From positions 1 through 64,000 of the forward strand of contig NZ_FNEY01000010.1 of the NCBI RefSeq assembly GCF_900100305.1: a stretch of DNA of 64,000 nucleotides. The letters are read 5' to 3'. This DNA is from Paracidovorax citrulli (GTDB lineage Bacteria > Pseudomonadota > Gammaproteobacteria > Burkholderiales > Burkholderiaceae_C). The position numbers were made by a program, and so were the translations under genes. The notes beneath the pieces are model-generated. The model saw only the letters and a program-made list of their open reading frames with translations. It was not told the origin of the DNA and ran no database searches. Shown one piece after another: positions 1 through 11,059 of the stretch (position 1 is its first letter; each line of letters starts with the position of its first letter).

Positions 1-281
1 TGCGCCACGCGGATGATCGAGCGCAGGTCCGACACCATCGCCTCGAAGCAGCCCGCTTCCAGCCAGCGTCGGGTTTGCTGGTAGACCGCCTCCCAAGGAG
101 GTAGATCGTTGGGCAGCATCCGCCAAGGCGCGCCTGCGCGCACCAGCCAGCGCAGGGCGTTGAAGACTTCGCGCAGATCGTGCTCGCGCTGGGGCGCGCG
201 CTGGTCCATCAGGCTCAAGTAGGGCGCAGCGAAGCTCCATTCTTCATCGCTGACATCCGTCGGGTAGGGCTTGCGGGGCAT
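1..281 (-). mobile_element. IS5-family transposase, N-terminal fragment (runs off left edge)
   Basis: Reading minus from the ATG at 279-281, the frame is open to the window edge and encodes 93 residues starting MPRKPYPTDVSDEEWSF, followed by a LREVFNALRWLVRAG segment and WRMLPNDLPPWEAVYQQ. This is the typical N terminus (DUF4096-like, helix-turn-helix region) of IS5-family transposases of the type common in Acidovorax. The DDE catalytic part would lie outside the window, so I cannot say if the element is intact. The element end should lie just right of 281, because these insertion sequences have very short 5' leaders. No second terminal repeat is available to fix it. Confidence 0.85.
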
Positions 282-299
282 CCGCAGACTCTACCTTTG

Positions 300-710
300 A
301 CTTCCACTCCGAGGAGCAAAGTTCATAACACGCTCTACGTTGCGGTTGCCAACGGATTCTCGGCGGTTCGCGGGCACCGGCTCGATGTCATCGACAAGTT
401 TCTCTCGAACCCGACCTTGGGGAGCTATCATCTATTCGGCACTACCGGGAATGGCAGCAAGGCGATGGTTGCCAGCGTCGTCAACGGCGAACTGAGCATT
501 CATGACCCTCAGTTATACGAGGCCATTACAGATCCCCAAGGTGCCCGGGCAGGCGATAGCGGCGATCAGATCATTGACGCTGCGCTGATCGACCGGCTGA
601 CCAAAGGTATAGACGACCCAGCGCGAGCCATGGATGCCCGCACCGCATTGGAGCGGTACGCGGGCATGACGTGGTCGGACGCTCTGGCCGCCCATAGTTC
701 ACTGACTTGA
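300..710 (+). pseudogene. C-terminal remnant of an unknown protein next to the IS end
   Basis: An open frame continues out of the IS region and, from about 300, encodes about 136 residues ending TGA at 708-710. The composition looks like a real protein (segments such as HNTLYVAVANGFSAVRG, SYHLFGTTGNGSKAMV and ALERYAGMTWSDAL). No plausible start codon with a ribosome site is seen between the IS end and the body, so it is probably a gene whose 5' part was removed or displaced by the insertion element. Base composition is clearly lower in GC than the neighbours, which suggests acquired DNA. I do not recognise the family; an effector or polymorphic-toxin tail is possible but unproven. Confidence 0.45.
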
Positions 711-724
711 CCCCGAAAAATACC

Positions 725-1021
725 ATGACAGGCCTGAAAGGCGCAGATGCGCTCGACTTCCATAAGAAACTCAAGGAACGCAATGCTGCTTTACGCAATG
801 CGGAGTTGAACGCGGCGAAGGAACTGGCCGACAAAAATGGCAAGGAGCCTTTTGATCTCGTGAAACTGGAGAGGCTTTGCGATACCAGTCAAGCAGGCCG
901 CCTTGTTGAAGGGACCGAACGGCAAGCCATGTACGAATACATGTACTACGTCGAGTACAAGAATGTTGGCACGTTGCAGGATTTCGCCCGGGTGGTGACA
1001 ACGCTCGCGTCCTGGTCTTAA
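725..1021 (+). CDS. small orphan protein, 98 aa
   Basis: ATG at 725 (an in-frame TTG lies at 707) gives a charged, helical, soluble-looking protein with a KKLKERNAALRNAELNAAKE stretch and a Tyr-rich QAMYEYMYYVEYK segment near residue 75. There is no signal peptide or membrane segment. It follows the remnant ending at 710 by 14 nt on the same strand, so the two may be parts of one accessory operon, for example an effector or toxin tail with its partner. That is inference from arrangement only. Shine-Dalgarno is weak. Composition is lower in GC than the flanking core genes. Family not recognised. The 158 bases to the next gene hold nothing I can identify. Confidence 0.5.
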   Translation: MTGLKGADALDFHKKLKERNAALRNAELNAAKELADKNGKEPFDLVKLERLCDTSQAGRLVEGTERQAMYEYMYYVEYKNVGTLQDFARVVTTLASWS

Positions 1022-1179: not shown

Positions 1180-2043
1180 TCAAGAGGCAGATTCCAGGCA
1201 GGCCACGGCATAGGGCACGTGGCCATGGCGCCCGCGGAATTCGTCCTCGAACCGGCGGTGCGCTTCGGAAAACAGGCCGAAGGGCCGGCATTCCTGCAGC
1301 ACGCGAAAGCCCGTGCCCCCCTCCACCAGCGCGGCGGCATCGCGGAAGCCGCTGACCACCGGCAACATGGCGGGGCCCGCCTGCCAGGCGGCGATCGGCA
1401 CGAAATCCGGATGCAGGTAATCCAGCACCACGCGGCAGCCGCAGCCTGCGCGCCGCGCACGCGCCGCGAGCCGCTCGAGCAGATGCCGGATGTCCGCCGG
1501 GGGCACATAGGGCGCCACGCCTTCGAGCAGCACGAGGAAGCTCCGGCCTTCCTGCCAGGGCATGGCCTCCAGCCAGGTGTCGTCCTGCAGGGTACCGGGA
1601 ACCAGCCGGCCCGAGCCCGGGGCCGCGACGGAAGGCAGGAGCAGGCGCCGCAGGGCGATGACTTCCGGCAGGTCGGCATCGATCCATTCGACGCCCGGCA
1701 AGGACGGCGCCAGCCGGCCCTGCCGGGTGCAGAGCCCCGCGCCCAGGCTGAGCACGGCGTGGACAGGCCGCTCGGCGCAGGCCTGCAGCACCAGGCGGTC
1801 GAAGACCAGGCCGCGCGCCACCACGGCCCGCACCAGCGCGGGGTCGTCCGCCGCGCGGCGCAGGTCCCAGGGGCACTGCGCCAGCAGCGGCGCGGCCCAG
1901 GGATCCACCCATGCGGCGTCGGCCTCGCGTGCCAGCGGGGAGGCCCGCGCGCTCAGGGTGAGCGCCAGGGTGGCGGAACTGCCGCGCAGGGCCTCCCAGG
2001 TCCCGGCGAGGCCGACCGGCCCTTCAGGTGGCACGGCAGGCAC
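1180..2043 (-). CDS. SAM-dependent carboxyl methyltransferase, LCMT/PPM1 (TcmP-like) family
   Basis: This 287-aa protein has the layout of leucine carboxyl methyltransferase-like enzymes. An N-terminal helix region carries SARASPLARE and WVDPWAAPLL, the SAM-binding loop is VLSLGAGLCTR (97-106), the acidic strand is DADLPEV (122-128), and the LEGVAPYVPP motif (173-182) is typical of the family. Family members methylate carboxylates (the PP2A C-terminal Leu; the tetracenomycin acid). Translation starts at a GTG immediately after the TGA of the precursor gene (TGAGTG), with no good ribosome site, so it should be translationally coupled. Position in the cassette suggests it tailors the neighbouring precursor product, possibly its C-terminal carboxylate; the substrate is inference. 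It is the last gene of the minus-strand cassette. Confidence 0.8.
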   Translation of the reverse strand: MPAVPPEGPVGLAGTWEALRGSSATLALTLSARASPLAREADAAWVDPWAAPLLAQCPWDLRRAADDPALVRAVVARGLVFDRLVLQACAERPVHAVLSLGAGLCTRQGRLAPSLPGVEWIDADLPEVIALRRLLLPSVAAPGSGRLVPGTLQDDTWLEAMPWQEGRSFLVLLEGVAPYVPPADIRHLLERLAARARRAGCGCRVVLDYLHPDFVPIAAWQAGPAMLPVVSGFRDAAALVEGGTGFRVLQECRPFGLFSEAHRRFEDEFRGRHGHVPYAVACLESAS

Positions 2044-2841
2044 TCAGCAGGTGAACGGATAGGCGCTGCCGGTGTTGTTGTACGACGTGAGCGAGATCGG
2101 CCAGAAATCCCGGGCCTCGGGCGCGTTGGGATAGTTCAGCACGATGCGGTTCTTGATCTTGCTGCCGTCCGGATTGAGCTGGTTCCAGCAACCCTTGCCG
2201 GCATCCCAGGTCAGCGACTTGTTGGGCGTGAACCGGATGGAGAAGTTGAAGGGGTTGTTGTAGCCCAGCCATTGGCTCAACAGCGGCGCCGCATCGGCAC
2301 AGCCGGGGTTCAGCAGCTCGTCGCGGAACTCCTTCGACTGCCAGGCGAGCGCGATGGCCCGCAGCACCACGCCGCCGAAGGCCAGCAGGGAGCCGGGGTC
2401 CCCGCCCGGGATGCCCAGGCCCGTGGGCAGCGCGCCGCCCACCATGCCCGGCGGCACGTGCTCCTCGTCGCGGGCGTCGGCGGTCGCGCCCATGAGCGTG
2501 GGGAACAGCTGGTAATAGCTGGCCAGCGCCTCGGCGGCGCGGTCGGCGGGCGCTTCGGGGAAGACGATCTCGAAGGCATCGTCCAGGCCGATCCAGCCGG
2601 CGGTCAGTTCGGGCTTCCACAAGGTCTGGTCGAGCGGGTTGTCGCTGCGAAGGAGCGCCACGTCCAGCCAGGGCCACTGGGTCGTCATGCCGAAGTCCTT
2701 GGCGAGCAGGGGCTGGATGTCCTTTTGCCTGAGCAGGGTGTCGCGGTATTCGGGTTCGTACCAGGACTTGGCGATGGCACGCAGATAGGCCAGCCGGAAT
2801 TCCAGCAAGGGATCGCCGGGCTGCTGCTGAATGGAACTCAT
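2044..2841 (-). CDS. BMA_0021/BMA_0022-type TOMM precursor-like protein
   Basis: This 265-aa protein has no signal peptide. It resembles the large nitrile-hydratase-leader-like precursors annotated as BMA_0021/BMA_0022-family TOMM bacteriocins (recognised from memory). Two copies of a helical leader-like module are visible: residues 11-50, with LAYLRAIAKSW and EYRDTLL, and 151-194, with GVVLRAIALAW and EFRDELL. Between them lies a Gly/Pro-rich linker (128-150). The C terminus (195-265) is rich in Asn, Ser, Thr and Tyr and ends SYNNTGSAYPFTC; this would be the modified core. Ribosome site AGGGGAGG precedes the ATG. The kinase gene ends 27 bp upstream and the methyltransferase GTG follows directly. 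Core Cys content is low for a TOMM (few Cys), so modification may involve Ser/Thr or be limited. Confidence 0.7.
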   Translation of the reverse strand: MSSIQQQPGDPLLEFRLAYLRAIAKSWYEPEYRDTLLRQKDIQPLLAKDFGMTTQWPWLDVALLRSDNPLDQTLWKPELTAGWIGLDDAFEIVFPEAPADRAAEALASYYQLFPTLMGATADARDEEHVPPGMVGGALPTGLGIPGGDPGSLLAFGGVVLRAIALAWQSKEFRDELLNPGCADAAPLLSQWLGYNNPFNFSIRFTPNKSLTWDAGKGCWNQLNPDGSKIKNRIVLNYPNAPEARDFWPISLTSYNNTGSAYPFTC

Positions 2842-2868
2842 TGGAATCCTCCCCTCATCATCATCGGA

Positions 2869-5800
2869 TCAACACACGAATGCCCCGAGCCCGGGGCGCA
2901 TACCCAGCAAGGACTGCAGCCGCTCTTCGTCGCTGGCAGTGCAGGATGCGGGATCCACATGGCGCAGGCGTGACAGGGCCTGCACTTCTATCCGGTACTT
3001 GCCGCCTTCCCGGGCGGTCTGGACGGCCTGGCGCAGGCAGGCGGCGGCCTCTGTGGCGCGCGCGCCGTCCTGCAGCAGGCAGTGGGCCTTCTGCAGCCAC
3101 AGTTCCGCAGTGTATATGCCCTCGTCCAGTTCGCGCGCGAGTTCGATGCAGTGTTCCAGGCGGCCGGCGGCGTCGGCCCAGCGGCCCTGCCGCGCCAGGA
3201 TCTCCGCGCAGAAGGCCCGGTAGTAGGTCTGGCAATATTTGCAGCCGATGCCCCAGAGGGCCTCGATCATTCCGTCGGCACCGGCGAGGTCGCCCACCAC
3301 CCAGCAGCGGATGACCTCGGCATACCCGCGGAAGGCCGGCAGGCCATAGCGCCCGGACAGCTCGATCAGCTCGTCCACCACCTGGCGGGCGCGTTCGACG
3401 TCCTGCCGCCCCAGGTAGCCCAGGGCCTGGTAGAGCATGGTGATGCCCATCGAGGGAATGTGCGCGAGGGCCCGGGCGCGTTCCACCGCGCGCACGCCAT
3501 CGTCGTGCGCCAGCGCGTCGTGGCCGGCGCCCCACCGGACCAGGGACCGCGCGGCCAGCGCCCACGACACGGTGTCGAAGCCCAGTTGCGCGGCATGGTG
3601 CCTGGAGGCATCGCCATGGCGCTCGTCGATGGCTTCGGAGAGGTAGCGCTCCGCTTCCTCGAAGCGCCCTTCGGAATAGAACGCGAGCCCGATCCAGGTG
3701 CAGGCCGCCACCAGGATGCCCGCGTCCCCCTGCCGGCGCGCCAGCTCTTCGAGCTGCAGGCTCAGGCGCATGACCTCGGCACGGTGGCTCGCCACGTGGT
3801 GGTAGGTGAGCATGAGCCAGATGTGCTGCACCCGCAGGTCCACGGAGATGTCGCGCTCCACCAGCCCCCGGGACTGCTCGATGCGCTGCTCCACCTGGGG
3901 ATGCGCCCAGCCGTACTTGTTCATCAGCGCCTGCAGCACGTAGCCGTCCAGCGCGAGCCGGGGCTCCCAGCGGTCGGCCTCCTCCAGGCGGTCGATCCAC
4001 TCCTCCACCGTGCGCGAATAGGTGATGGTCTCGTCGTTCAGCGAACGGTGCTGGGTCATGCGCAACTGGGCGAGTCCCGCCGGCACCGCGTTCGCGAAAT
4101 CCCGCGCCAGCGCATAGTGGTGCGCCAGCAGGCCGGGCTCTTCGTCGCGCACACGGGGGCGCCGCTTCAATATCACCGTGGCGGCCACGCCGTGCATATG
4201 CGAGCGCTGCGTCGTCAGCATGCTGTCGTAGGCGGCGTCGCGGATCAGCGCATGCCGAAACAGGTAGTGGCCCGCGGCATCCGCCGGCATGAGCAGCCCC
4301 ACGTCCACCAGGGACCGCAGGCTGTCCTCCACGTCCTGCATGCCGCAGTCCGGCAGCCACTCGGCATCGAAACGCCGTCCCCAGATCGAGGCCCAGCGCA
4401 GCACCTCGCGCGCCGGGCCGAGCTGCATGAAGCGGCTTTCCAGCGAGTCGCGCAGGGTGATCGGAATGCCCTTCAGGTCGGCCTGGTCCTGGAAATCCCA
4501 CACGCCGTCGCGCTCGACCAGGCAGGTTTCCAGCAGCGTGCGCGCGAGCTCCTGGATGAACAGCGCGACGCCGTCCGTGCGGGCGACGACGTGGTCGATG
4601 ACCGCCTGCGACACCCGGCGCGGCGCCAGCACGTGCCGCACCATGGACGCGGCCTCGGCCGGCCCCAGCCGGCCCACCTCCAGCCGCTGCAGCGCACCGG
4701 CCATGGGCAGGGGCGGCTCCCATTCGGGCCGGGCCGTGAGCAGCAGCATCCAGCGCTGCTCCGCCATGGCGCCCGCGAGCGCCGCCAGCCATTCCAGCGT
4801 CGCGGAATCCGCCCAGTGCAGGTCCTCGACGAACAGCAGCACCGGAGCGGAACGCGCCTGCGTCTGCAGCCAGCGCTGCGCGGCTTCCATCAGCAGCGCC
4901 TTCTGCAGCGCGGGGGCGATGTCCACCACCTGGTGCCGGCCGACCTGCAGCGACAGCCAGACGCAGAAGATCGGCAGCACGCGCTCCACGTCGCAGCCGG
5001 CCGCGGACAGCAGGGCCGACAGGCGCTCGACGACGGCGTCGTCGGGGGCTTCCGGATCGCCGCATTGCGCGCGCACCAGGGCCAGCATGGGCGCGAGGGC
5101 GCTGTTTTCCTGCTCGGGCCAGCAGGCGGTGCGCAGCACCAGCCCCTCGCGCCCCTCCACCTGCGACAGGAAGGTTTCGCTCAGGCAGGATTTGCCGATG
5201 CCGGCCTCGCCGCGCACCAGCACCGCGCGGCCCCGCCCTGCGACCGCGTCCCGCCAGCGGCGGCGCAGCGCCAGCAGCTCGCGCCACCGGCCCACGGCCT
5301 CGCGCAGCGGTTGCCGCGCTGCCTCTTCGGGCAGCATGCCGAAGGCAGGTATTTCCGAGGTGGCGCCCGGCAGGCGCACGCCGCCCTGCGGCACGAAGCG
5401 GGCATGGTGGCGCAGGCGCTGGCGCGCCGCCTCGCTCACGACCACCTGGCCGTCGGACGCCGCGGCTTCCATCCGCATCGCGATGTCCAGCGCGCGGCAC
5501 GGCACGACCGAACCGCTCTCGATCAGGACGGAGCCCGTGTGCAGGCCGATGCGGACCTGCCAGCGCACCTCCGGGCCCGCATCCTCTGCCGAACGCACCA
5601 GCTCGCGGGAGATCCGGGCGGCCAGGCGGGCATCGGCTTCGGCGTGGGAGGAGTAGCCGAGCGTGACCAGGAAATGCGTGCCCAGGGTACCGCCCAGCGT
5701 GCCGCCGCGCTGCACGGCGACGTCGATGAGGCGGCGCAGCACGCTGCGCTGGGCCATCTCCTGCCGCTCCGCGACCTCCTCGTCCGCCGGCTCGGGCGGC

Positions 5801-6804
5801 TGCGAGAAATAGACGCCGCAGTACAGCAGCGTGAGCTGCCGCTTCTCTTCGTGCGGCGTGCCGAAGGCCACGGTGGGCGCGATGGCGCTCGGGCCGGCGC
5901 CCGGGCGCGTCCGCAGGATGCCTACCAGGTCGTCCAGGCGCACGGCGGCCGAGCGCTCCCAGAGCTGGCGCGCCGAGGCGGCCCGGTCCTGGCAGCGCTT
6001 GCGCAGGGCGCTGCGCAGCACCTCGGCCAGCGGATGGCCCTGGATCGCCTGGGGCAGGCTGAATTCCTGGGGCGACAACTGCCGCTGGTAGATCTCGGCG
6101 GTGGATTCGCCCGTGACCACCTTGCCGGTGAGGCACTCCAGGAAGATCAGGCCCCAGGCATAGAGGTCGGCCTGGGGGGTCACGGCTTCGCCGCGCAACT
6201 GCTCCGGCGAGCTGTAGGCGGGCGTGCCGACGTATTCCCCCTCGCGCGTGAGCTGGGTTGCCAGCGCATCGCCGAAGCCGGGCAGCAGCGTGCTGATGCC
6301 GAAATCCAGCACCTTGGCATGCGAGGTCAGCCCCGAGGCGCTGACCATGATGTTCTCGGGCTTGAGGTCGCGGTGCGTGATGCCCGCGTCGTGCGCGCAG
6401 GCCATGGCGTCCAGCACCTGGAGCATGAGGCGGCCGGTTTCGGCCGCGGGCAGCGCGCCCTGGTTCTGCAGCACCTGCCGCAACGTCAGGCCCGGGACGA
6501 ACTCGAACACCGCGAAGACGAACGGGCCGCACACGCCCTCGTCGAGCAGTTGCACGATGTGCGGATGGTGGAGCCGGGCGCAGGCCGCGATCTCGCGCCG
6601 GAACCGCTTGAAAAGGCGCTCGTCCTCGTCGATGCGGACGAACTTCAGCACCACCTTCTGGCCGGTCTGGCGGTGGGCCGCGGAAAACACGATGCCGTAG
6701 GAGCCCGTGCCGATCACGTCCTGCAGTACGTAGCGCTGCACGAGCGCGTCCTGCGTGGAGAAGGCGTCCCGGATGTGCCCCGGGTCCGGAGCGCGGAGAC
6801 TCAT
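2869..6804 (-). CDS. Ser/Thr kinase / cyclase-like / STAND ATPase / TPR fusion (TOMM system kinase-cyclase type)
   Basis: This 1311-aa cytosolic regulator starts at the ATG at 6804, preceded by AGGGGGA. The Hanks-type kinase (about 25-290) has GTGSYG (32-37), Lys54, Glu71, HRDLKPEN (144-151), DFG (167-169) and SPE (199-201), so it looks active. A class III nucleotide cyclase-like domain (about 312-490) follows. It keeps RIGLHTGSV and RMEAAASDGQVVVSEA but lacks both metal Asp residues: the expected FxD is YCG at 328-330 and the expected GD is GT at 375-376. A STAND/AAA ATPase has Walker A GEAGIGKS (532-539) and Walker B LLFVEDLHWAD. The C-terminal third is TPR-like helical repeats. The architecture matches TOMM system kinase/cyclase fusion proteins, which accompany this precursor family. 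thiD ends only 31 bp upstream. Confidence 0.8.
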   Translation of the reverse strand: MSLRAPDPGHIRDAFSTQDALVQRYVLQDVIGTGSYGIVFSAAHRQTGQKVVLKFVRIDEDERLFKRFRREIAACARLHHPHIVQLLDEGVCGPFVFAVFEFVPGLTLRQVLQNQGALPAAETGRLMLQVLDAMACAHDAGITHRDLKPENIMVSASGLTSHAKVLDFGISTLLPGFGDALATQLTREGEYVGTPAYSSPEQLRGEAVTPQADLYAWGLIFLECLTGKVVTGESTAEIYQRQLSPQEFSLPQAIQGHPLAEVLRSALRKRCQDRAASARQLWERSAAVRLDDLVGILRTRPGAGPSAIAPTVAFGTPHEEKRQLTLLYCGVYFSQPPEPADEEVAERQEMAQRSVLRRLIDVAVQRGGTLGGTLGTHFLVTLGYSSHAEADARLAARISRELVRSAEDAGPEVRWQVRIGLHTGSVLIESGSVVPCRALDIAMRMEAAASDGQVVVSEAARQRLRHHARFVPQGGVRLPGATSEIPAFGMLPEEAARQPLREAVGRWRELLALRRRWRDAVAGRGRAVLVRGEAGIGKSCLSETFLSQVEGREGLVLRTACWPEQENSALAPMLALVRAQCGDPEAPDDAVVERLSALLSAAGCDVERVLPIFCVWLSLQVGRHQVVDIAPALQKALLMEAAQRWLQTQARSAPVLLFVEDLHWADSATLEWLAALAGAMAEQRWMLLLTARPEWEPPLPMAGALQRLEVGRLGPAEAASMVRHVLAPRRVSQAVIDHVVARTDGVALFIQELARTLLETCLVERDGVWDFQDQADLKGIPITLRDSLESRFMQLGPAREVLRWASIWGRRFDAEWLPDCGMQDVEDSLRSLVDVGLLMPADAAGHYLFRHALIRDAAYDSMLTTQRSHMHGVAATVILKRRPRVRDEEPGLLAHHYALARDFANAVPAGLAQLRMTQHRSLNDETITYSRTVEEWIDRLEEADRWEPRLALDGYVLQALMNKYGWAHPQVEQRIEQSRGLVERDISVDLRVQHIWLMLTYHHVASHRAEVMRLSLQLEELARRQGDAGILVAACTWIGLAFYSEGRFEEAERYLSEAIDERHGDASRHHAAQLGFDTVSWALAARSLVRWGAGHDALAHDDGVRAVERARALAHIPSMGITMLYQALGYLGRQDVERARQVVDELIELSGRYGLPAFRGYAEVIRCWVVGDLAGADGMIEALWGIGCKYCQTYYRAFCAEILARQGRWADAAGRLEHCIELARELDEGIYTAELWLQKAHCLLQDGARATEAAACLRQAVQTAREGGKYRIEVQALSRLRHVDPASCTASDEERLQSLLGMRPGLGAFVC

Positions 6805-6835
6805 GCGGCTTCCCCCTGGCGCGGCGGGCGGCCGC

Positions 6836-7735
6836 TCACAGGGATCCCCCGGTCGCGGCCGGGTCGCGGTGGATGCGCTGCGCCACGGGCGCATGCCCAT
6901 GGTCGAGCGGACCTGCGCCGCGGCCCGTGCGCACCGGTGCCCCGGCGGCGATCGCCGCCTGGACGTAGGCATGCGCGGCGGCCACCGCTTCGCGCAGTCC
7001 GCTGCCCAGGGCCAGGTGGGCGGCGATCGCGGACGACAGCGTGCAGCCCGTGCCATGGCCGTTGCGCGTCGGGATGCGCGCGGACCGCAGGCGCAGGTGC
7101 TGCGCCACGCCCCGCACGGCCAGGACATCCACCAGCGCGTCGCCCGGCAGGTGGCCGCCCTTGAGCAGCACGGCCTGGGCGCCGAGGCCCAGCAGCTCCC
7201 GCGCCGCGGCGTCCATGGCGCTCTCGTCCTGGATGGCGCGGCCCAGCAGCATGCCCGCCTCGTCGAGGTTCGGCGTCACCACCGCAGCCAGCGGAAACAG
7301 CGCCTTCACCAGCACGCGCACGGTGTCCGGCGCGATGAGGCGATCGCCGCTGGTGGCCACCATGACGGGGTCGAGCACCACGTGGGGCAGCGCGTGCCGG
7401 CGGATCGCGTCGGCCACCACCTCGGCGACCTCCGGAGCATGCAGCATGCCGATCTTGACGGCATCCACGCCGATGTCTTCCACCACCGCGTCGATCTGGT
7501 CGCCCAGGATGGCGGCGGGCACTCCGTGGATGGAGCGTACGCCCTGCGTGTTCTGGGCGGTGATGGCCGTGATGGCGGTCATTCCGTAGCAGCCCAGGGC
7601 GGCGAAGGTCTTCAGGTCGGCCTGGATGCCCGCCCCGCCTCCGCTGTCGGACCCGGCGATGGACAGGACGCGCACGTATCGGGGTCCTTCCACGGCGCAT
7701 GCAGCCGGCCGTGGTTCGAGAGGCTTGGAATTCAT
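6836..7735 (-). CDS. thiD: hydroxymethylpyrimidine kinase / phosphomethylpyrimidine kinase
   Basis: This 299-aa enzyme performs the two phosphorylations of the HMP moiety of thiamine (HMP to HMP-P to HMP-PP). Diagnostic ribokinase-fold signatures are VLSIAGSDSGGGAGIQADLK near the N terminus, VLDPVMVATSG in the middle and the anion-hole motif RNGHGTGCTLSSA near residue 225. The last about 20 residues are a variable tail. It is divergent from the riboswitch-controlled thiO operon, sharing the 240-bp spacer 7736-7974. A CATAAT hexamer lies 7 nt before its ATG with no Shine-Dalgarno. The kinase gene of the TOMM cassette follows after 31 bp on the same strand, so read-through from thiD is likely. 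Confidence 0.95.
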   Translation of the reverse strand: MNSKPLEPRPAACAVEGPRYVRVLSIAGSDSGGGAGIQADLKTFAALGCYGMTAITAITAQNTQGVRSIHGVPAAILGDQIDAVVEDIGVDAVKIGMLHAPEVAEVVADAIRRHALPHVVLDPVMVATSGDRLIAPDTVRVLVKALFPLAAVVTPNLDEAGMLLGRAIQDESAMDAAARELLGLGAQAVLLKGGHLPGDALVDVLAVRGVAQHLRLRSARIPTRNGHGTGCTLSSAIAAHLALGSGLREAVAAAHAYVQAAIAAGAPVRTGRGAGPLDHGHAPVAQRIHRDPAATGGSL

Positions 7736-7742
7736 GGCAAAA

Positions 7743-7748
7743 ATTATG
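7743..7748 (-). promoter_or_regulatory. -10-like CATAAT of thiD, probably leaderless
   Basis: On the minus strand CATAAT is followed by 7 nt (TTTTGCC) and then the thiD ATG. With the usual 6-7 nt from the -10 box to +1, the transcript would start at or next to the start codon. There is no Shine-Dalgarno, which fits. No convincing -35 was identified. Confidence 0.45.
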
Positions 7749-7807
7749 GCGCATGCGCGATATCAAATACGCCTTCCGCAGCGCTGTGCTGTAATTCAGG
7801 GAACGGA

Positions 7808-7892
7808 CGAAACAGGGGTGCCGCGCCCGCCGGGCGCGGCTGAGAAAGACCCTCGGCACCCGATCCAGGTCATGCTGGCGTGGGGAGTTTCG
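7808..7892 (+). promoter_or_regulatory. TPP riboswitch (THI box)
   Basis: The conserved thiamine-pyrophosphate aptamer is readable. P1 closes with CGAAAC (7808-7813) against GTTTCG (7887-7892). GGGGTGCC and the CTGAGA box (near 7839) form the pyrimidine-sensing arm, with ACCC, CGATCCAGGTCATGCTGG and GTGGGGA in the 3' half. The P3 arm is a GC-rich hairpin (CGCGCCCG/CGGGCGCG). The thiO start lies 82 nt downstream, and the segment between should hold the expression platform. It regulates thiO-thiS-thiG-thiE by TPP feedback. This orientation is plus; it does not read into thiD. Confidence 0.95.
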
Positions 7893-7974
7893 ACGGTGGA
7901 CCGCCGCCTGTTCTCCGTGCCGCGCCTTCGCGCGCAAGCGCCCGACCGACGAGAACCGCATCCACCGCCCGCCC

Positions 7975-9093
7975 ATGACCGCCCTGCTGTCCCCGCATTC
8001 CTCCATCGCCATCCTGGGCGCCGGCCTCATGGGCCGGCTGCTGGCCGCCGAGCTGGCGCGGCAGGGGCACGCCGTGGAGGTGTACGAGGCCCAGGGCCCC
8101 GACGCCCAGGGCGCGGCCGCCCGCATCGCCGCCGCCATGCTCGCGCCGCTGGCGGAATCCGCCATCACCGAAGCCGGCGTGGTCCGCATGGGGCACCATG
8201 CCCTGTCGCGCTGGCCCCAGCTGCTGGCCGGCCTCGAGTGGCCCGTGTTCTTCCAGCAGGAGGGCACCCTCATCCTCTGGCACCGCCAGGATGCCGCCGA
8301 GGCCGCGCGGCTGCGCGGCGTGCTGGAGCGCACGGCCCGCACCGTTCCCGAACTGCCGGCCCTCCAGGTGCTGGACGGCAGGGAACTGCAGGAGGCCGAG
8401 CCCGCCCTCCAGGGACAGCGCTTCCACCAGGGCCTGTACCTGCCCGGAGAGGGCCAGCTCGACAATCGCCAGTTGCTCGCGGCGCTGGAGCACGCCATGC
8501 GCGCACGCGGCGTCCGGGTGCACTGGCACCACCCGCGCACGCCGGAAGATTTCACGCCGGGCATGCCCGGCCAGCCCGACTGGGTGCTGGACTGCCGGGG
8601 CCTGGGCGCCCTGGCCCAGTGGTCCGAACTGCGCGGGGTGCGCGGCGAGGTGGTCCGCCTGCACGCGCCCGGCGTGGCGCTGCGCCGGCCCACCCGGCTG
8701 GTGCATCCGCGCTACCCCATCTACATCGCCCCCAAGCAGGACCACGTCTTCGTGATCGGCGCCACCGAGATCGAATCGGACGACCTCTCGCCCGCGAGCG
8801 TGCGCTCCACCCTGGAACTGTTGAGCGCGGCCTATGCCGTGCATCCCGGATTCGCCGAGGCCCGCATCCTCGAGATCGCCACCCAGTGCCGTCCCACCCT
8901 GCCCGACAACCTGCCCGCGGTGCGGCGCACCGCGCCGCGCGTTCTGCAGGTGAACGGCCTGTACCGGCACGGCTTCATGATTTCCCCGGCCATCCTGGAC
9001 GTGGTGATGGAATGCCTGAACGAAGGACAATCACCCCTCGCCTCCCGCTTCGACCTGGCGCTGGACCTCGAGTCCGCCGCCGCACTGCCATGA
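7975..9093 (+). CDS. thiO: glycine oxidase ThiO (FAD-dependent)
   Basis: This 372-aa DAO-type flavoenzyme oxidises glycine to iminoglycine for thiazole formation. The N-terminal Rossmann dinucleotide site is IAILGAGLMGRLLAAELA (10-27), followed by the acidic strand ending VEVYEA. RIAAAMLAPLAE and, near the C terminus, NGLYRHGFMISPA are typical ThiO signatures. It is the first gene behind the TPP riboswitch. The ATG at 7975 is chosen because the flavin motif starts about 10 residues later; no strong Shine-Dalgarno is present. The 3' end overlaps thiS by ATGA at 9090-9093. Using ThiO rather than ThiH implies aerobic thiazole synthesis. Confidence 0.95.
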   Translation: MTALLSPHSSIAILGAGLMGRLLAAELARQGHAVEVYEAQGPDAQGAAARIAAAMLAPLAESAITEAGVVRMGHHALSRWPQLLAGLEWPVFFQQEGTLILWHRQDAAEAARLRGVLERTARTVPELPALQVLDGRELQEAEPALQGQRFHQGLYLPGEGQLDNRQLLAALEHAMRARGVRVHWHHPRTPEDFTPGMPGQPDWVLDCRGLGALAQWSELRGVRGEVVRLHAPGVALRRPTRLVHPRYPIYIAPKQDHVFVIGATEIESDDLSPASVRSTLELLSAAYAVHPGFAEARILEIATQCRPTLPDNLPAVRRTAPRVLQVNGLYRHGFMISPAILDVVMECLNEGQSPLASRFDLALDLESAAALP

Positions 9094-9287
9094 ACGTCGT
9101 CATCAACCAGAAAGCCACCGAGCTGCCCGAGGGCGCCACCGTGGCCCATGCCATCGCGGCGATCGCCGCCCGCCCGCCCTTCGCGGTGGCCGTCAACACC
9201 GTGTTCGTCCCCCAGGCCCGCCATGCCCAGCATGCGCTGCAGTCCGGCGACCGGGTCGAGATCATCGCGCCGGTGACGGGCGGCTGA
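9090..9287 (+). CDS. thiS: sulfur carrier protein ThiS
   Basis: This 65-aa ubiquitin-like protein ends VTGG, the C-terminal Gly-Gly that is adenylated and thiocarboxylated to deliver sulfur to ThiG. The beta-grasp pattern is visible (MNVVINQKA, then [10 protein letters not shown], then [13 protein letters not shown]). Length is normal. The start overlaps the thiO stop. No thiF is in the window, so the adenylating partner (ThiF or MoeB) must be elsewhere. Confidence 0.95.
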
Positions 9288-9348
9288 CGCCCCTGCCCGG
9301 CAGCCTGCCGACGCAGGCCGCCCAGCCCTTCCCTTTCCGACATCCGCC

Positions 9349-10158
9349 ATGCCCGACACCGCATCCGATGACGCCCTGGTCCTCTACGGCCAGCGCTTCG
9401 CCAGCCGGCTCCTGCTGGGAACCGCCCGCTATCCCTCGCCCAGCGTGCTGGAGGCCGCCGTGCGGCGCGCCCGCCCGGCCATGGTGACCGCCTCGCTGCG
9501 GCGCCAGGGCAGCAACCCCGCGGAAGCCGGCAGCGGCTTCTGGGAACTGCTGCGCCGGCTGGACGTGCCGGTGCTGCCGAACACCGCCGGCTGCCACAGC
9601 ATCCAGGAAGCCGTCACCACCGCCCAGATGGCCCGCGAGGTCTTCGGCACGCCCTGGATCAAGCTGGAGCTGATCGGCGACGACTACACGCTGCAGCCCG
9701 ACACGCTGAACCTCGTGGAGGCCGCCTCCCAGCTGGTACGCGACGGCTTCCACGTGCTGCCCTACTGCACCGAAGACCTCGTGCTCTGCCAGCGCCTGGT
9801 GGACGTGGGCTGCCAGGCCGTCATGCCCTGGGCCGCGCCCATCGGCACCGGCCGTGGCCCCGTCAATCCGTACGCGCTGCGCACGCTGCGCGAGCGGCTG
9901 GACGTACCCCTGCTCGTGGATGCGGGCCTGGGCCTGCCCTCGCATGCCTGCCAGGTCATGGAATGGGGCTACGACGGGGTGCTGCTCAACACGGCCGTGG
10001 CCCTGGCGCAGGACCCGGTGGCCATGGCCGGCGCCTTCGCCGACGCGGTGCAGGCCGGACGCACCGCCCGGCAGGCCGGCGCCATGTCCGCGCAGGACGC
10101 CGCCCAGCCGAGCACGCCCGTGCTCGGCACCCCTTTCTGGCACCACGACCATGGCTGA
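9349..10158 (+). CDS. thiG: thiazole synthase ThiG
   Basis: This 269-aa TIM-barrel enzyme builds thiazole phosphate carboxylate from DXP, iminoglycine (ThiO) and ThiS-thiocarboxylate. Recognisable motifs are [16 protein letters not shown] near residue 19, [10 protein letters not shown] (the Lys forming the imine with DXP), [17 protein letters not shown] and [21 protein letters not shown] 61-bp gap separates it from thiS. Its last 8 nt overlap the start of thiE, giving translational coupling. Confidence 0.95.
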
Positions 10159-11059
10159 AGATTCCACCCTCCAGGCGATGGCCGAGGCCATCGTGCAGGC
10201 CCACGCGGCGGCCTTCGCCGGCTTTCCCGCCCAGCCCGCGCCGGCCCCTGCGCACGGTGGAGCGGCCTATGGCGCCGCCCTGCGCGCCTGCAGCCAGCTC
10301 GGCTTCATCGCCGTGGACGCCGACTGCCTCGCGCGCGCCTGGCAGGCCCGGACGGACCGCACGGGCCATTTCGACGCATCGCATTGGCCCGACGAGCCCG
10401 TGGACTTCGGCCTGCAGCCCCGGCCCCACGCCCGCCCCTTCGCGACCTGCCCGGACAGGCTCGGCCTGTACGCCGTGCTGCCCGATGCCCACTGGGTGGG
10501 CCGCATGGCCCGGGCCGGCGTGCCGACGGTGCAGCTGCGCTTCAAGTCGGAAGACGGCGCGGCCGTCGAGCGCGAAGTGCGGGCCGCAGTAGAGGCGGTG
10601 CGGGGCACCTCCGCCCTGCTCTTCATCAACGACCACTGGCAGGCCGCCATCGGGGCCGGTGCCTATGGCGTCCACCTGGGGCAGGAAGACCTCGATGCCC
10701 TGCCCCCCGGCTCGCTGGAGACGCTGCGCGCCTCCGGATTGCGGCTCGGGGTGAGCACGCACGGGTACGCCGAGATGGTGCGCGCCGACGCGGCGGCTCC
10801 CAGCTACGTGGCCATGGGCGCGGTCTTCCCCACCACGCTCAAGAAGATGGCGACCGTGCCCCAGGGGCTGGCCCGCCTCGCGGGCTATGCGCGGCTCATG
10901 CGCGGCTACCCGCAGGTGGCGATCGGCGGGATCGGCGCGGAACAGTTCGCCGATGTGCTCGCGACCGGCGTCGGGTCCATCGCCGTGGTGCGCGCGCTGG
11001 TGAACGCCCCCGATCCGGAAGCCGCGGCGCGCGACCTCATGCAGCGCATGGGGCGGTAG
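10151..11059 (+). CDS. thiE: thiamine phosphate synthase with an N-terminal extension
   Basis: This 302-aa protein is longer than usual for ThiE (about 210). The catalytic TIM barrel occupies roughly residues 98-302, with [62 protein letters not shown] and [11 protein letters not shown]. These bind HMP-PP and thiazole phosphate. The first about 95 residues are Ala/Pro-rich then amphipathic and match no domain I know. The ATG at 10151 lies inside the thiG 3' end and is in frame with the whole extension, so the extension should be translated. It ends the riboswitch operon and faces the FimV-like gene convergently. Confidence 0.9.

What the first reader, a model, noticed from the sequence alone, without database searches (positions are those of the whole stretch)
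1180..6804. Minimal TOMM-like cassette: giant kinase fusion, NHLP-like precursor and carboxyl methyltransferase, without a visible cyclodehydratase
Three tightly coupled minus-strand genes (27-bp gap, then stop/start adjacency TGAGTG) pair a kinase/cyclase-like/STAND/TPR regulator with a BMA_0021/BMA_0022-type precursor and an LCMT-family methyltransferase. Known TOMM loci of this kind include YcaO-type cyclodehydratase and often a dehydrogenase. None is in the window, and an IS fragment lies just beyond. Either the modifying genes are elsewhere, the locus is decaying, or the kinase and methyltransferase are the only modifiers.
Basis: partly seen in the sequence, partly recalled or inferred. 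Interest (0 to 1): 0.88.

Follow-up and report, generated by a model that had tools for sequence, protein, structure and literature searches.

The report
Peptide-modifying operon split by assembly gap
Three genes that looked like a peptide-modifying kit without its key enzyme belong to a known kind of operon whose key enzyme is in the same genome on another assembly piece, likely cut off at a repeated mobile element, and the kit is predicted to build a ring at the tail end of a small protein.

Summary
In detail: three adjacent minus-strand genes encode a TIGR03903 kinase fusion (1969 bits), a double TIGR03795 precursor (199 bits) and an LCM-family methyltransferase (53 bits). The premise that no cyclodehydratase accompanies them does not. 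The genome holds one YcaO protein (fused, TruD/LynD-like) plus an FHA gene near the end of contig C36; the window is the start of contig C34. In five of seven same-genus carriers the order kinase-precursor-methyltransferase-YcaO-FHA is contiguous. In the sixth (G008), and in two pieces here, an AvrRxo1-type effector module lies between methyltransferase and YcaO; here an IS5-family copy interrupts the effector gene, at both contig ends. All five genes are open, with dN/dS below 0.4, so decay is not supported. Haft et al. 2010 already described this cluster kind in Acidovorax avenae, and a 2016 paper tabulated the effector's neighbours. What I add: the precursor ends YPFTC in 27 of 27 named loci; loci without the methyltransferase (13 of 13 examined) end in Cys-Cys; one Variovorax lacks kinase and FHA at the locus but keeps precursor, methyltransferase and YcaO. 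The kinase is therefore likely a regulator, and YcaO plus methyltransferase the modifiers.

The parts
2869..6804 (-). Ser/Thr kinase - cyclase-like - AAA/STAND - TPR fusion (TIGR03903); likely regulator
   Evidence: TIGR03903 1969.2 bits; PF00069 151.5, PF13191 68.8, PF00211 27.3 bits; Lys, HRD, DFG and Walker A motifs present
2044..2841 (-). Fused double NHLP-Burk precursor; predicted folded halves plus low-confidence C-terminal tail (residues 247-265) ending YPFTC
   Evidence: TIGR03795 199.2 bits, two stretches; tail identical in the 7 genus carriers and YPFTC in 27 named loci; AlphaFold2 pLDDT under 50 for 247-265
1180..2043 (-). LCM-family SAM methyltransferase
   Evidence: PF04072 53.4 bits
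707..1021 (+). ORF2 (Arc1-like antitoxin/chaperone) of the effector module inserted between methyltransferase and YcaO; probable start at 725 (98 aa)
   Evidence: 96% identical to the ORF in the same place in G008; named by analogy with PMC4938570; no NCBIfam hit and no Pfam hit above cut-off
336..710 (+). C-terminal piece of a XopAJ/AvrRxo1-family effector gene interrupted by an IS
   Evidence: NF041405 174.9 bits, model positions 204-324; the N-terminal piece is at the end of contig C36
1..335 (-). End of an IS5-family element with the N-terminal part of its transposase (3-281); repeat at which the assembly breaks (right edge of the IS approximate)
   Evidence: NF033580 78.3 bits, below cut-off 110 as a fragment, DUF4096 85.3 bits; five other 100% identical stretches of 240-298 bases in the genome

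Best explanation
The window's kinase, precursor and methyltransferase genes are three of the five core genes of a known TOMM operon type (NHLP-Burk) whose fused YcaO cyclodehydratase and FHA genes are in the same genome on contig C36, most likely the adjoining stretch, cut off in the assembly by a repeated IS5-family element inside an AvrRxo1-type effector gene that sits between the two halves. Shown by sequence: the five genes, their contiguous order in relatives, the effector module at the same place in relative G008, and the IS. Inferred mechanism: the TruD/LynD-like cyclodehydratase, through its TIGR03882 leader-binding domain, would bind the folded nitrile-hydratase-like halves of the precursor and close the C-terminal Thr-Cys of the invariant tail to a thiazoline (-18 Da). 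No SagB-type dehydrogenase was found, so the ring would stay unoxidised. The LCM-family methyltransferase would then methylate the tail, most simply its terminal carboxylate (+14 Da). The kinase fusion is likely a sensor-regulator whose phosphothreonine mark is read by the FHA protein (FHA domain plus a predicted winged-helix-like C-terminus), so these two would control the pathway and not modify the peptide.
Against: TIGR03604 scores 197.1, below its cut-off of 219.25. The MT has no match among solved structures, so carboxyl methylation rests on the family name. The MT/terminal-Cys link is one evolutionary split. The kinase-FHA link by loss rests on one genome, and FHA absence there was tested only in its 20-kb locus. 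The winged-helix reading of the FHA C-terminus comes from predicted secondary structure of the P. oryzae protein (pTM 0.50) and was not confirmed by fold search (matches lie within about residues 1-153). dN/dS for MT and FHA is somewhat higher in pairs with G000 than among its relatives. No product was observed.
Confidence: 0.72

Rival explanations
1. A truly minimal cassette in which the kinase and methyltransferase are the only modifiers and no cyclodehydratase takes part.
For: No YcaO among the ORFs next to the cassette in the window.
Against: YcaO is in the genome and in the same locus in all six other same-genus carriers; one Variovorax keeps YcaO and methyltransferase and lacks the kinase.
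Confidence: 0.02
2. A decaying locus: the effector insertion broke the operon, YcaO is no longer co-expressed, and the pathway is dying in this genome.
For: The effector module runs antisense between methyltransferase and YcaO, in place of their short spacer, in G000 and G008; it may separate YcaO and FHA from the upstream promoter. In pairs with G000, dN/dS of MT (0.30-0.37) and FHA (0.11-0.15) is higher than among the other four genomes (0.15-0.25 and 0.03-0.11).
Against: All five ORFs intact; kinase 0.08-0.13 and YcaO 0.27-0.29 in pairs with G000 are no higher than among relatives (0.06-0.14 and 0.27-0.32); the tail is unchanged.
Confidence: 0.15
3. Exported bacteriocin: the tail is cleaved from the leader and secreted as a (two-)peptide microcin, as the family name says.
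For: Family annotation and Haft 2010; general TOMM biology (recalled).
Against: Among 11 representative loci no flank ORF was shared by more than four; the widest is a small gene whose L083 copy has no Pfam hit, and the other matches link single pairs of loci, so no transporter or protease gene appears to travel with the operon. The flanks were not scanned for such domains by profile. The tail is invariant in its last five residues, unlike the hypervariable cores that PMC4603692 describes for NHLP and Nif11 precursors.
Confidence: 0.35
4. The kinase itself modifies the peptide (phospho-TOMM), comparable to the kinase domains of class III/IV lanthipeptide synthetases.
For: Weak kinase-domain matches to lanthi_synth_IV 81.9 and lanthi_synth_III 47.7 bits, far below their cut-offs; Thr and Ser residues in the tail.
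Against: Several ordinary kinase families match better (PknB_PASTA 206.2, MAD6 127.5, StpK7 102.6 bits, also below their cut-offs); the kinase is absent while tail and YcaO persist in L092.
Confidence: 0.08

Closest known systems
NHLP-Burk TOMM clusters (Haft, Basu and Mitchell 2010, PMC2887384; TIGR03795, TIGR03882; kinase later modelled as TIGR03903)
   Same: Large Ser/Thr kinase, tandem or fused TIGR03795 precursors with C-terminal Cys, fused cyclodehydratase; the paper names Acidovorax avenae and Delftia with fused precursors (passages and section 8 seen)
   Different: In this assembly the cluster is cut by a contig break and carries an effector module between methyltransferase and YcaO. 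FHA and methyltransferase genes of the cluster are not discussed in what I saw.
Cyanobactin cyclodehydratases TruD / LynD
   Same: The YcaO profile aligns to TruD over positions 126-737, 345.6 bits: fused leader-binding plus YcaO architecture
   Different: Different precursor (NHase-like, 265 aa). Whether a PatA/PatG-like protease is encoded was not searched; none was seen among the recurrent genes.
avrRxo1:arc1 toxin-antitoxin/effector module of Acidovorax avenae and A. citrulli (PMC4938570)
   Same: Flanked there by 'bacteriocin biosynthesis protein' and 'polyketide biosynthesis protein', evidently the YcaO and methyltransferase here (Table 1); transposon inactivation of avrRxo1 reported in A. 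citrulli
   Different: Here the gene is in two pieces at two contig ends
EmbR (FHA plus winged-helix regulator downstream of Ser/Thr kinases; function recalled)
   Different: Only the FHA domain was matched; the rest is untested; EmbR has its FHA domain at the C-terminal end (residues 289-382), here it is N-terminal

Membership tests
NHLP-Burk TOMM cluster | Precursor above the TIGR03795 cut-off | tested here: met
   199.2 bits against 41
NHLP-Burk TOMM cluster | Tandem or fused precursor pair with C-terminal Cys | tested here: met
   Two stretches in one ORF, ends FTC
NHLP-Burk TOMM cluster | TIGR03903 kinase fusion | tested here: met
   1969.2 bits against 705.75
NHLP-Burk TOMM cluster | Fused cyclodehydratase (TIGR03882 plus YcaO) encoded in the genome | tested here: met
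   TIGR03882 62.4 against 36.9; PF02624 253.2 against 25.7; TIGR03604 197.1, below 219.25
NHLP-Burk TOMM cluster | Cyclodehydratase clustered with the precursor in this genome | tested here: inconclusive
   On different contigs; relatives' order and the split effector and IS argue for adjacency
NHLP-Burk TOMM cluster | Azole or azoline in the product | not testable with these tools
   Needs mass spectrometry
TOMM with oxidised azoles | SagB-type dehydrogenase (TIGR03605) | tested here: not met
   0 matches at E <= 0.001 in the genome; the same search rings in 8 of 14 controls, over the cut-off in 4
LCM-family methyltransferase | PF04072 above gathering score | tested here: met
   53.4 against 22.3
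TIGR00027 methyltransferase subfamily | TIGR00027 above cut-off | tested here: not met
   44.9 against 93.55
LCM-family methyltransferase | Methylation of a C-terminal carboxylate | not testable with these tools
   Inferred from the family name and from the MT/terminal-Cys pattern
XopAJ/AvrRxo1 effector | NF041405 above cut-off | tested here: met
   N-terminal piece 336.8 against 300; C-terminal piece 174.9 (below, partial); the pieces were searched apart
FHA phosphothreonine reader | Conserved pThr-binding residues (GR, SxxH, NG) | tested here: met
   G22, R23, S38, H41, N59, G60 invariant in 30 of 30 rows; their role as pThr-binding residues is recalled

The most novel reading that the evidence does not exclude
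The NHLP-Burk product is not an exported, fast-evolving microcin but an intracellular, folded, double-domain protein whose invariant C-terminal tail carries a terminal thiazoline capped by a methyl ester, switched by a dedicated kinase-to-FHA phosphorelay; in the sister lineage a Cys-Cys end replaces the methyltransferase-capped single Cys.
Probability: 0.25. Interest if true: 0.72.

Novelty: already known. Interest (0 to 1): 0.34.

Why it matters
It removes a false lead (a TOMM without a cyclodehydratase) and explains it by a contig break at an IS repeat, a trap for any genome scan of draft assemblies. It also gives an uncharacterised 2010 family clear, testable handles: an invariant tail, a methyltransferase found here only where the tail ends in one Cys, and a natural kinase/FHA-less locus that separates regulators from modifiers.

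Tried and rejected

Considered and dropped: long antisense ORFs such as 3082-7164 (+) are high-GC shadow frames of the kinase gene (judged).
Full report
1. Observation. The three minus-strand ORFs are real and as described. Curated models confirm them: TIGR03903 1969.2 bits against a cut-off of 705.75, TIGR03795 199.2 against 41, PF04072 53.4 against 22.3. TIGR00027 for the methyltransferase is below cut-off (44.9 against 93.55). The kinase keeps its catalytic Lys, HRD, DFG and a Walker A motif; the cyclase-like part matches only positions 56-172 of 183 in PF00211 with 27.3 bits, so an active cyclase is doubtful.

2. Where the cyclodehydratase is. The window is C34:1-64000 of a 71-contig draft; its left edge is a contig end. 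The genome has one YcaO match, at C36:228130-229074, close to the 231673-base end of C36. It lies in a 765-aa ORF: PF02624 253.2 bits, TIGR03882 62.4 (cut-off 36.9), TIGR03604 197.1 (below 219.25). A seven-sequence profile of it matches the solved cyclodehydratases TruD, LynD and MusD at 345.6, 341.2 and 299.5 bits. Downstream of it lies an FHA-domain gene (PF00498 50.2 bits).

3. Relatives. Exactly the same 7 of 17 genomes of the genus have a TIGR03903 protein over cut-off, a TIGR03795 precursor and a YcaO. In five (G002, G010, G012, G013, G015) the order thiD - kinase - precursor - MT - YcaO - FHA is unbroken, with 59-121 bp from the MT stop to the ATG of the conserved MDWF start of YcaO. 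In G008 that distance is 1972 bp and an AvrRxo1-like gene and its small ORF2 lie there antisense. In G000 the same module is present in two pieces: the N-terminal piece beside YcaO at the end of C36 (NF041405 336.8 bits, model 1-203) and the C-terminal piece plus ORF2 beside the MT at the start of the window (174.9 bits, model 204-324). Between them is an IS5-family element: the transposase N-terminus at window 3-281 (NF033580 78.3 bits, below its cut-off of 110 as a fragment) and, by eye, its C-terminus at the end of C36. Stretches of 240-298 of the first 298 window bases occur with 100% identity at six places, at base 1-18 of contigs C34, C33 and C19. This is best read as a repeat-induced contig break.

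4. Names. A genome-contig scan with a nine-sequence precursor alignment gave 27 named loci in Paracidovorax, Acidovorax (MAG), Delftia, Variovorax, Xylophilus and Curvibacter. Contig lengths identify G015, G012, G010, G002 and G168 with five of them, so the window's genus is Paracidovorax (formerly Acidovorax; recalled). The species of G000 was not established. The contig of G008 is 5482170 bases, the size I recall for A. avenae ATCC 19860; no call checked this.

5. Is it decaying? All five genes are open in the five genomes compared (G000, G008, G012, G013, G015). dN/dS of G000 against the other four, with the range among those four in brackets: kinase 0.08-0.13 (0.06-0.14), precursor 0.20-0.27 (0.06-0.24), MT 0.30-0.37 (0.15-0.25), YcaO 0.27-0.29 (0.27-0.32), FHA 0.11-0.15 (0.03-0.11). 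This is purifying selection overall. The higher MT and FHA values leave room for some relaxation in this genome, and the values average over the whole history, most of it perhaps before the insertion. In the YcaO tree G000 falls outside P. oryzae, P. cattleyae and G008 (one of those branches is weak, 88/68), so the module's presence in G000 and G008 only would imply transfer or loss within the genus.

6. Conserved anatomy. In the 27 named loci the order kinase - precursor - MT - YcaO - FHA recurs: kinase in 26 of 27, MT in 27 of 27, YcaO in 25 of 27 (the two misses are contig ends; one further hit is cut by a contig end), FHA in 23 of 27 (three misses are contig ends). The effector module is in none of the 27. 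The true exception is L092, Variovorax sp. EL159: precursor, MT and YcaO are there, kinase and FHA are not, and its whole genome has no TIGR03903 match above 64.8 bits. It nests within Variovorax and Delftia relatives that have both genes, so this is most simply a loss. FHA absence was tested only in its 20-kb locus. Kinase and FHA thus look like one dispensable unit, and YcaO plus MT look like the modifiers.

7. The tail. All 27 named precursors end in YPFTC, within a tail of the form YN[NH]TG[SD][AP]YPFTC; the patterns that found these loci lie upstream of the tail. In the AlphaFold2 model (mean pLDDT 74.3) two similar folded halves are predicted and residues 247-265, the tail, have pLDDT under 50, as do three other stretches (1-8, 76-82, 128-148). 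A nearly invariant tail is unlike the hypervariable cores described for NHLP and Nif11 precursors in PMC4603692 (passages).

8. A two-way split. In Burkholderiaceae, 20 of 299 sampled genomes carry TIGR03795. In 12 of these 20 that I fetched, and in G093 from another family, the order is FHA - kinase - precursor - precursor - YcaO, no MT is found by tblastn at E <= 0.001 with two MT queries, and the second precursor ends in Cys-Cys: 13 of 13 (G093). In L139 the best kinase match covers only 228 residues. Haft et al. reported Cys-Cys or single Cys ends. On a YcaO tree the 17 MT/single-Cys rows and the 13 no-MT/Cys-Cys rows are two sides of one branch (support 100/100; the program warns of long branches), so this is one event and a suggestion, not a statistical link. 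Reading: the MT acts on the tail's end.

10. Known or new. Haft et al. 2010 (PMC2887384; passages and section 8 seen) describe this cluster kind, with the large kinase, in Acidovorax avenae and Delftia, including the fused precursor. PMC4938570 (passages and section 6 part 1 seen) lists 'bacteriocin biosynthesis protein' and 'polyketide biosynthesis protein' as neighbours of avrRxo1:arc1 in A. avenae and A. citrulli and reports transposon inactivation of avrRxo1 in A. citrulli. The system and the insertion are therefore already in print. The FHA gene, the small sixth gene, the MT/terminal-Cys split and the kinase/FHA-less locus I did not find described in searches (listings) or in the passages seen.

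Noticed in passing
L002:14701-15048 (-); L058:16631-16987 (+): A small gene (about 110-119 aa) downstream of FHA is conserved in 21 of 27 named loci (four of the six misses are contig ends; L087 and L092 lack it) and in G000, G008 and G013; not found in the 13 Burkholderia-type loci or G239. The L083 copy has no Pfam hit. A possible sixth operon member.
   Followed up: partly
L084:14508-15164 (+): A 218-aa gene follows FHA in Variovorax loci (13 other loci hold a relative); no Pfam hit.
   Followed up: partly
L078:14717-15235 (+) and L084:15154-16248 (+): Delftia and Variovorax loci share a further ORF between FHA and the small gene (53% identity over 145 aa); whether it is a gene was not tested.
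   Followed up: no
L092:9500-13450: Variovorax sp. EL159 carries precursor, methyltransferase and YcaO without kinase and FHA at the locus.
   Followed up: yes
window 1-1021; L055:13571-15123: AvrRxo1-type effector module lodged antisense between methyltransferase and YcaO, with G+C of about 57-63% (in G000) against 66-75% for the operon genes.
   Followed up: yes
window 6836-11059: thiD (TIGR00097 306.3 bits) directly upstream of the kinase, followed by ORFs that read like thiO, thiS, thiG and thiE (by eye only): the operon sits beside the thiamine genes.
   Followed up: no
L063-L067 (G051, G139, G298, G335, G095): Partial TIGR03795 matches below cut-off over the leader region only (21-29 bits); perhaps other NHLP-type precursors.
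   Followed up: no
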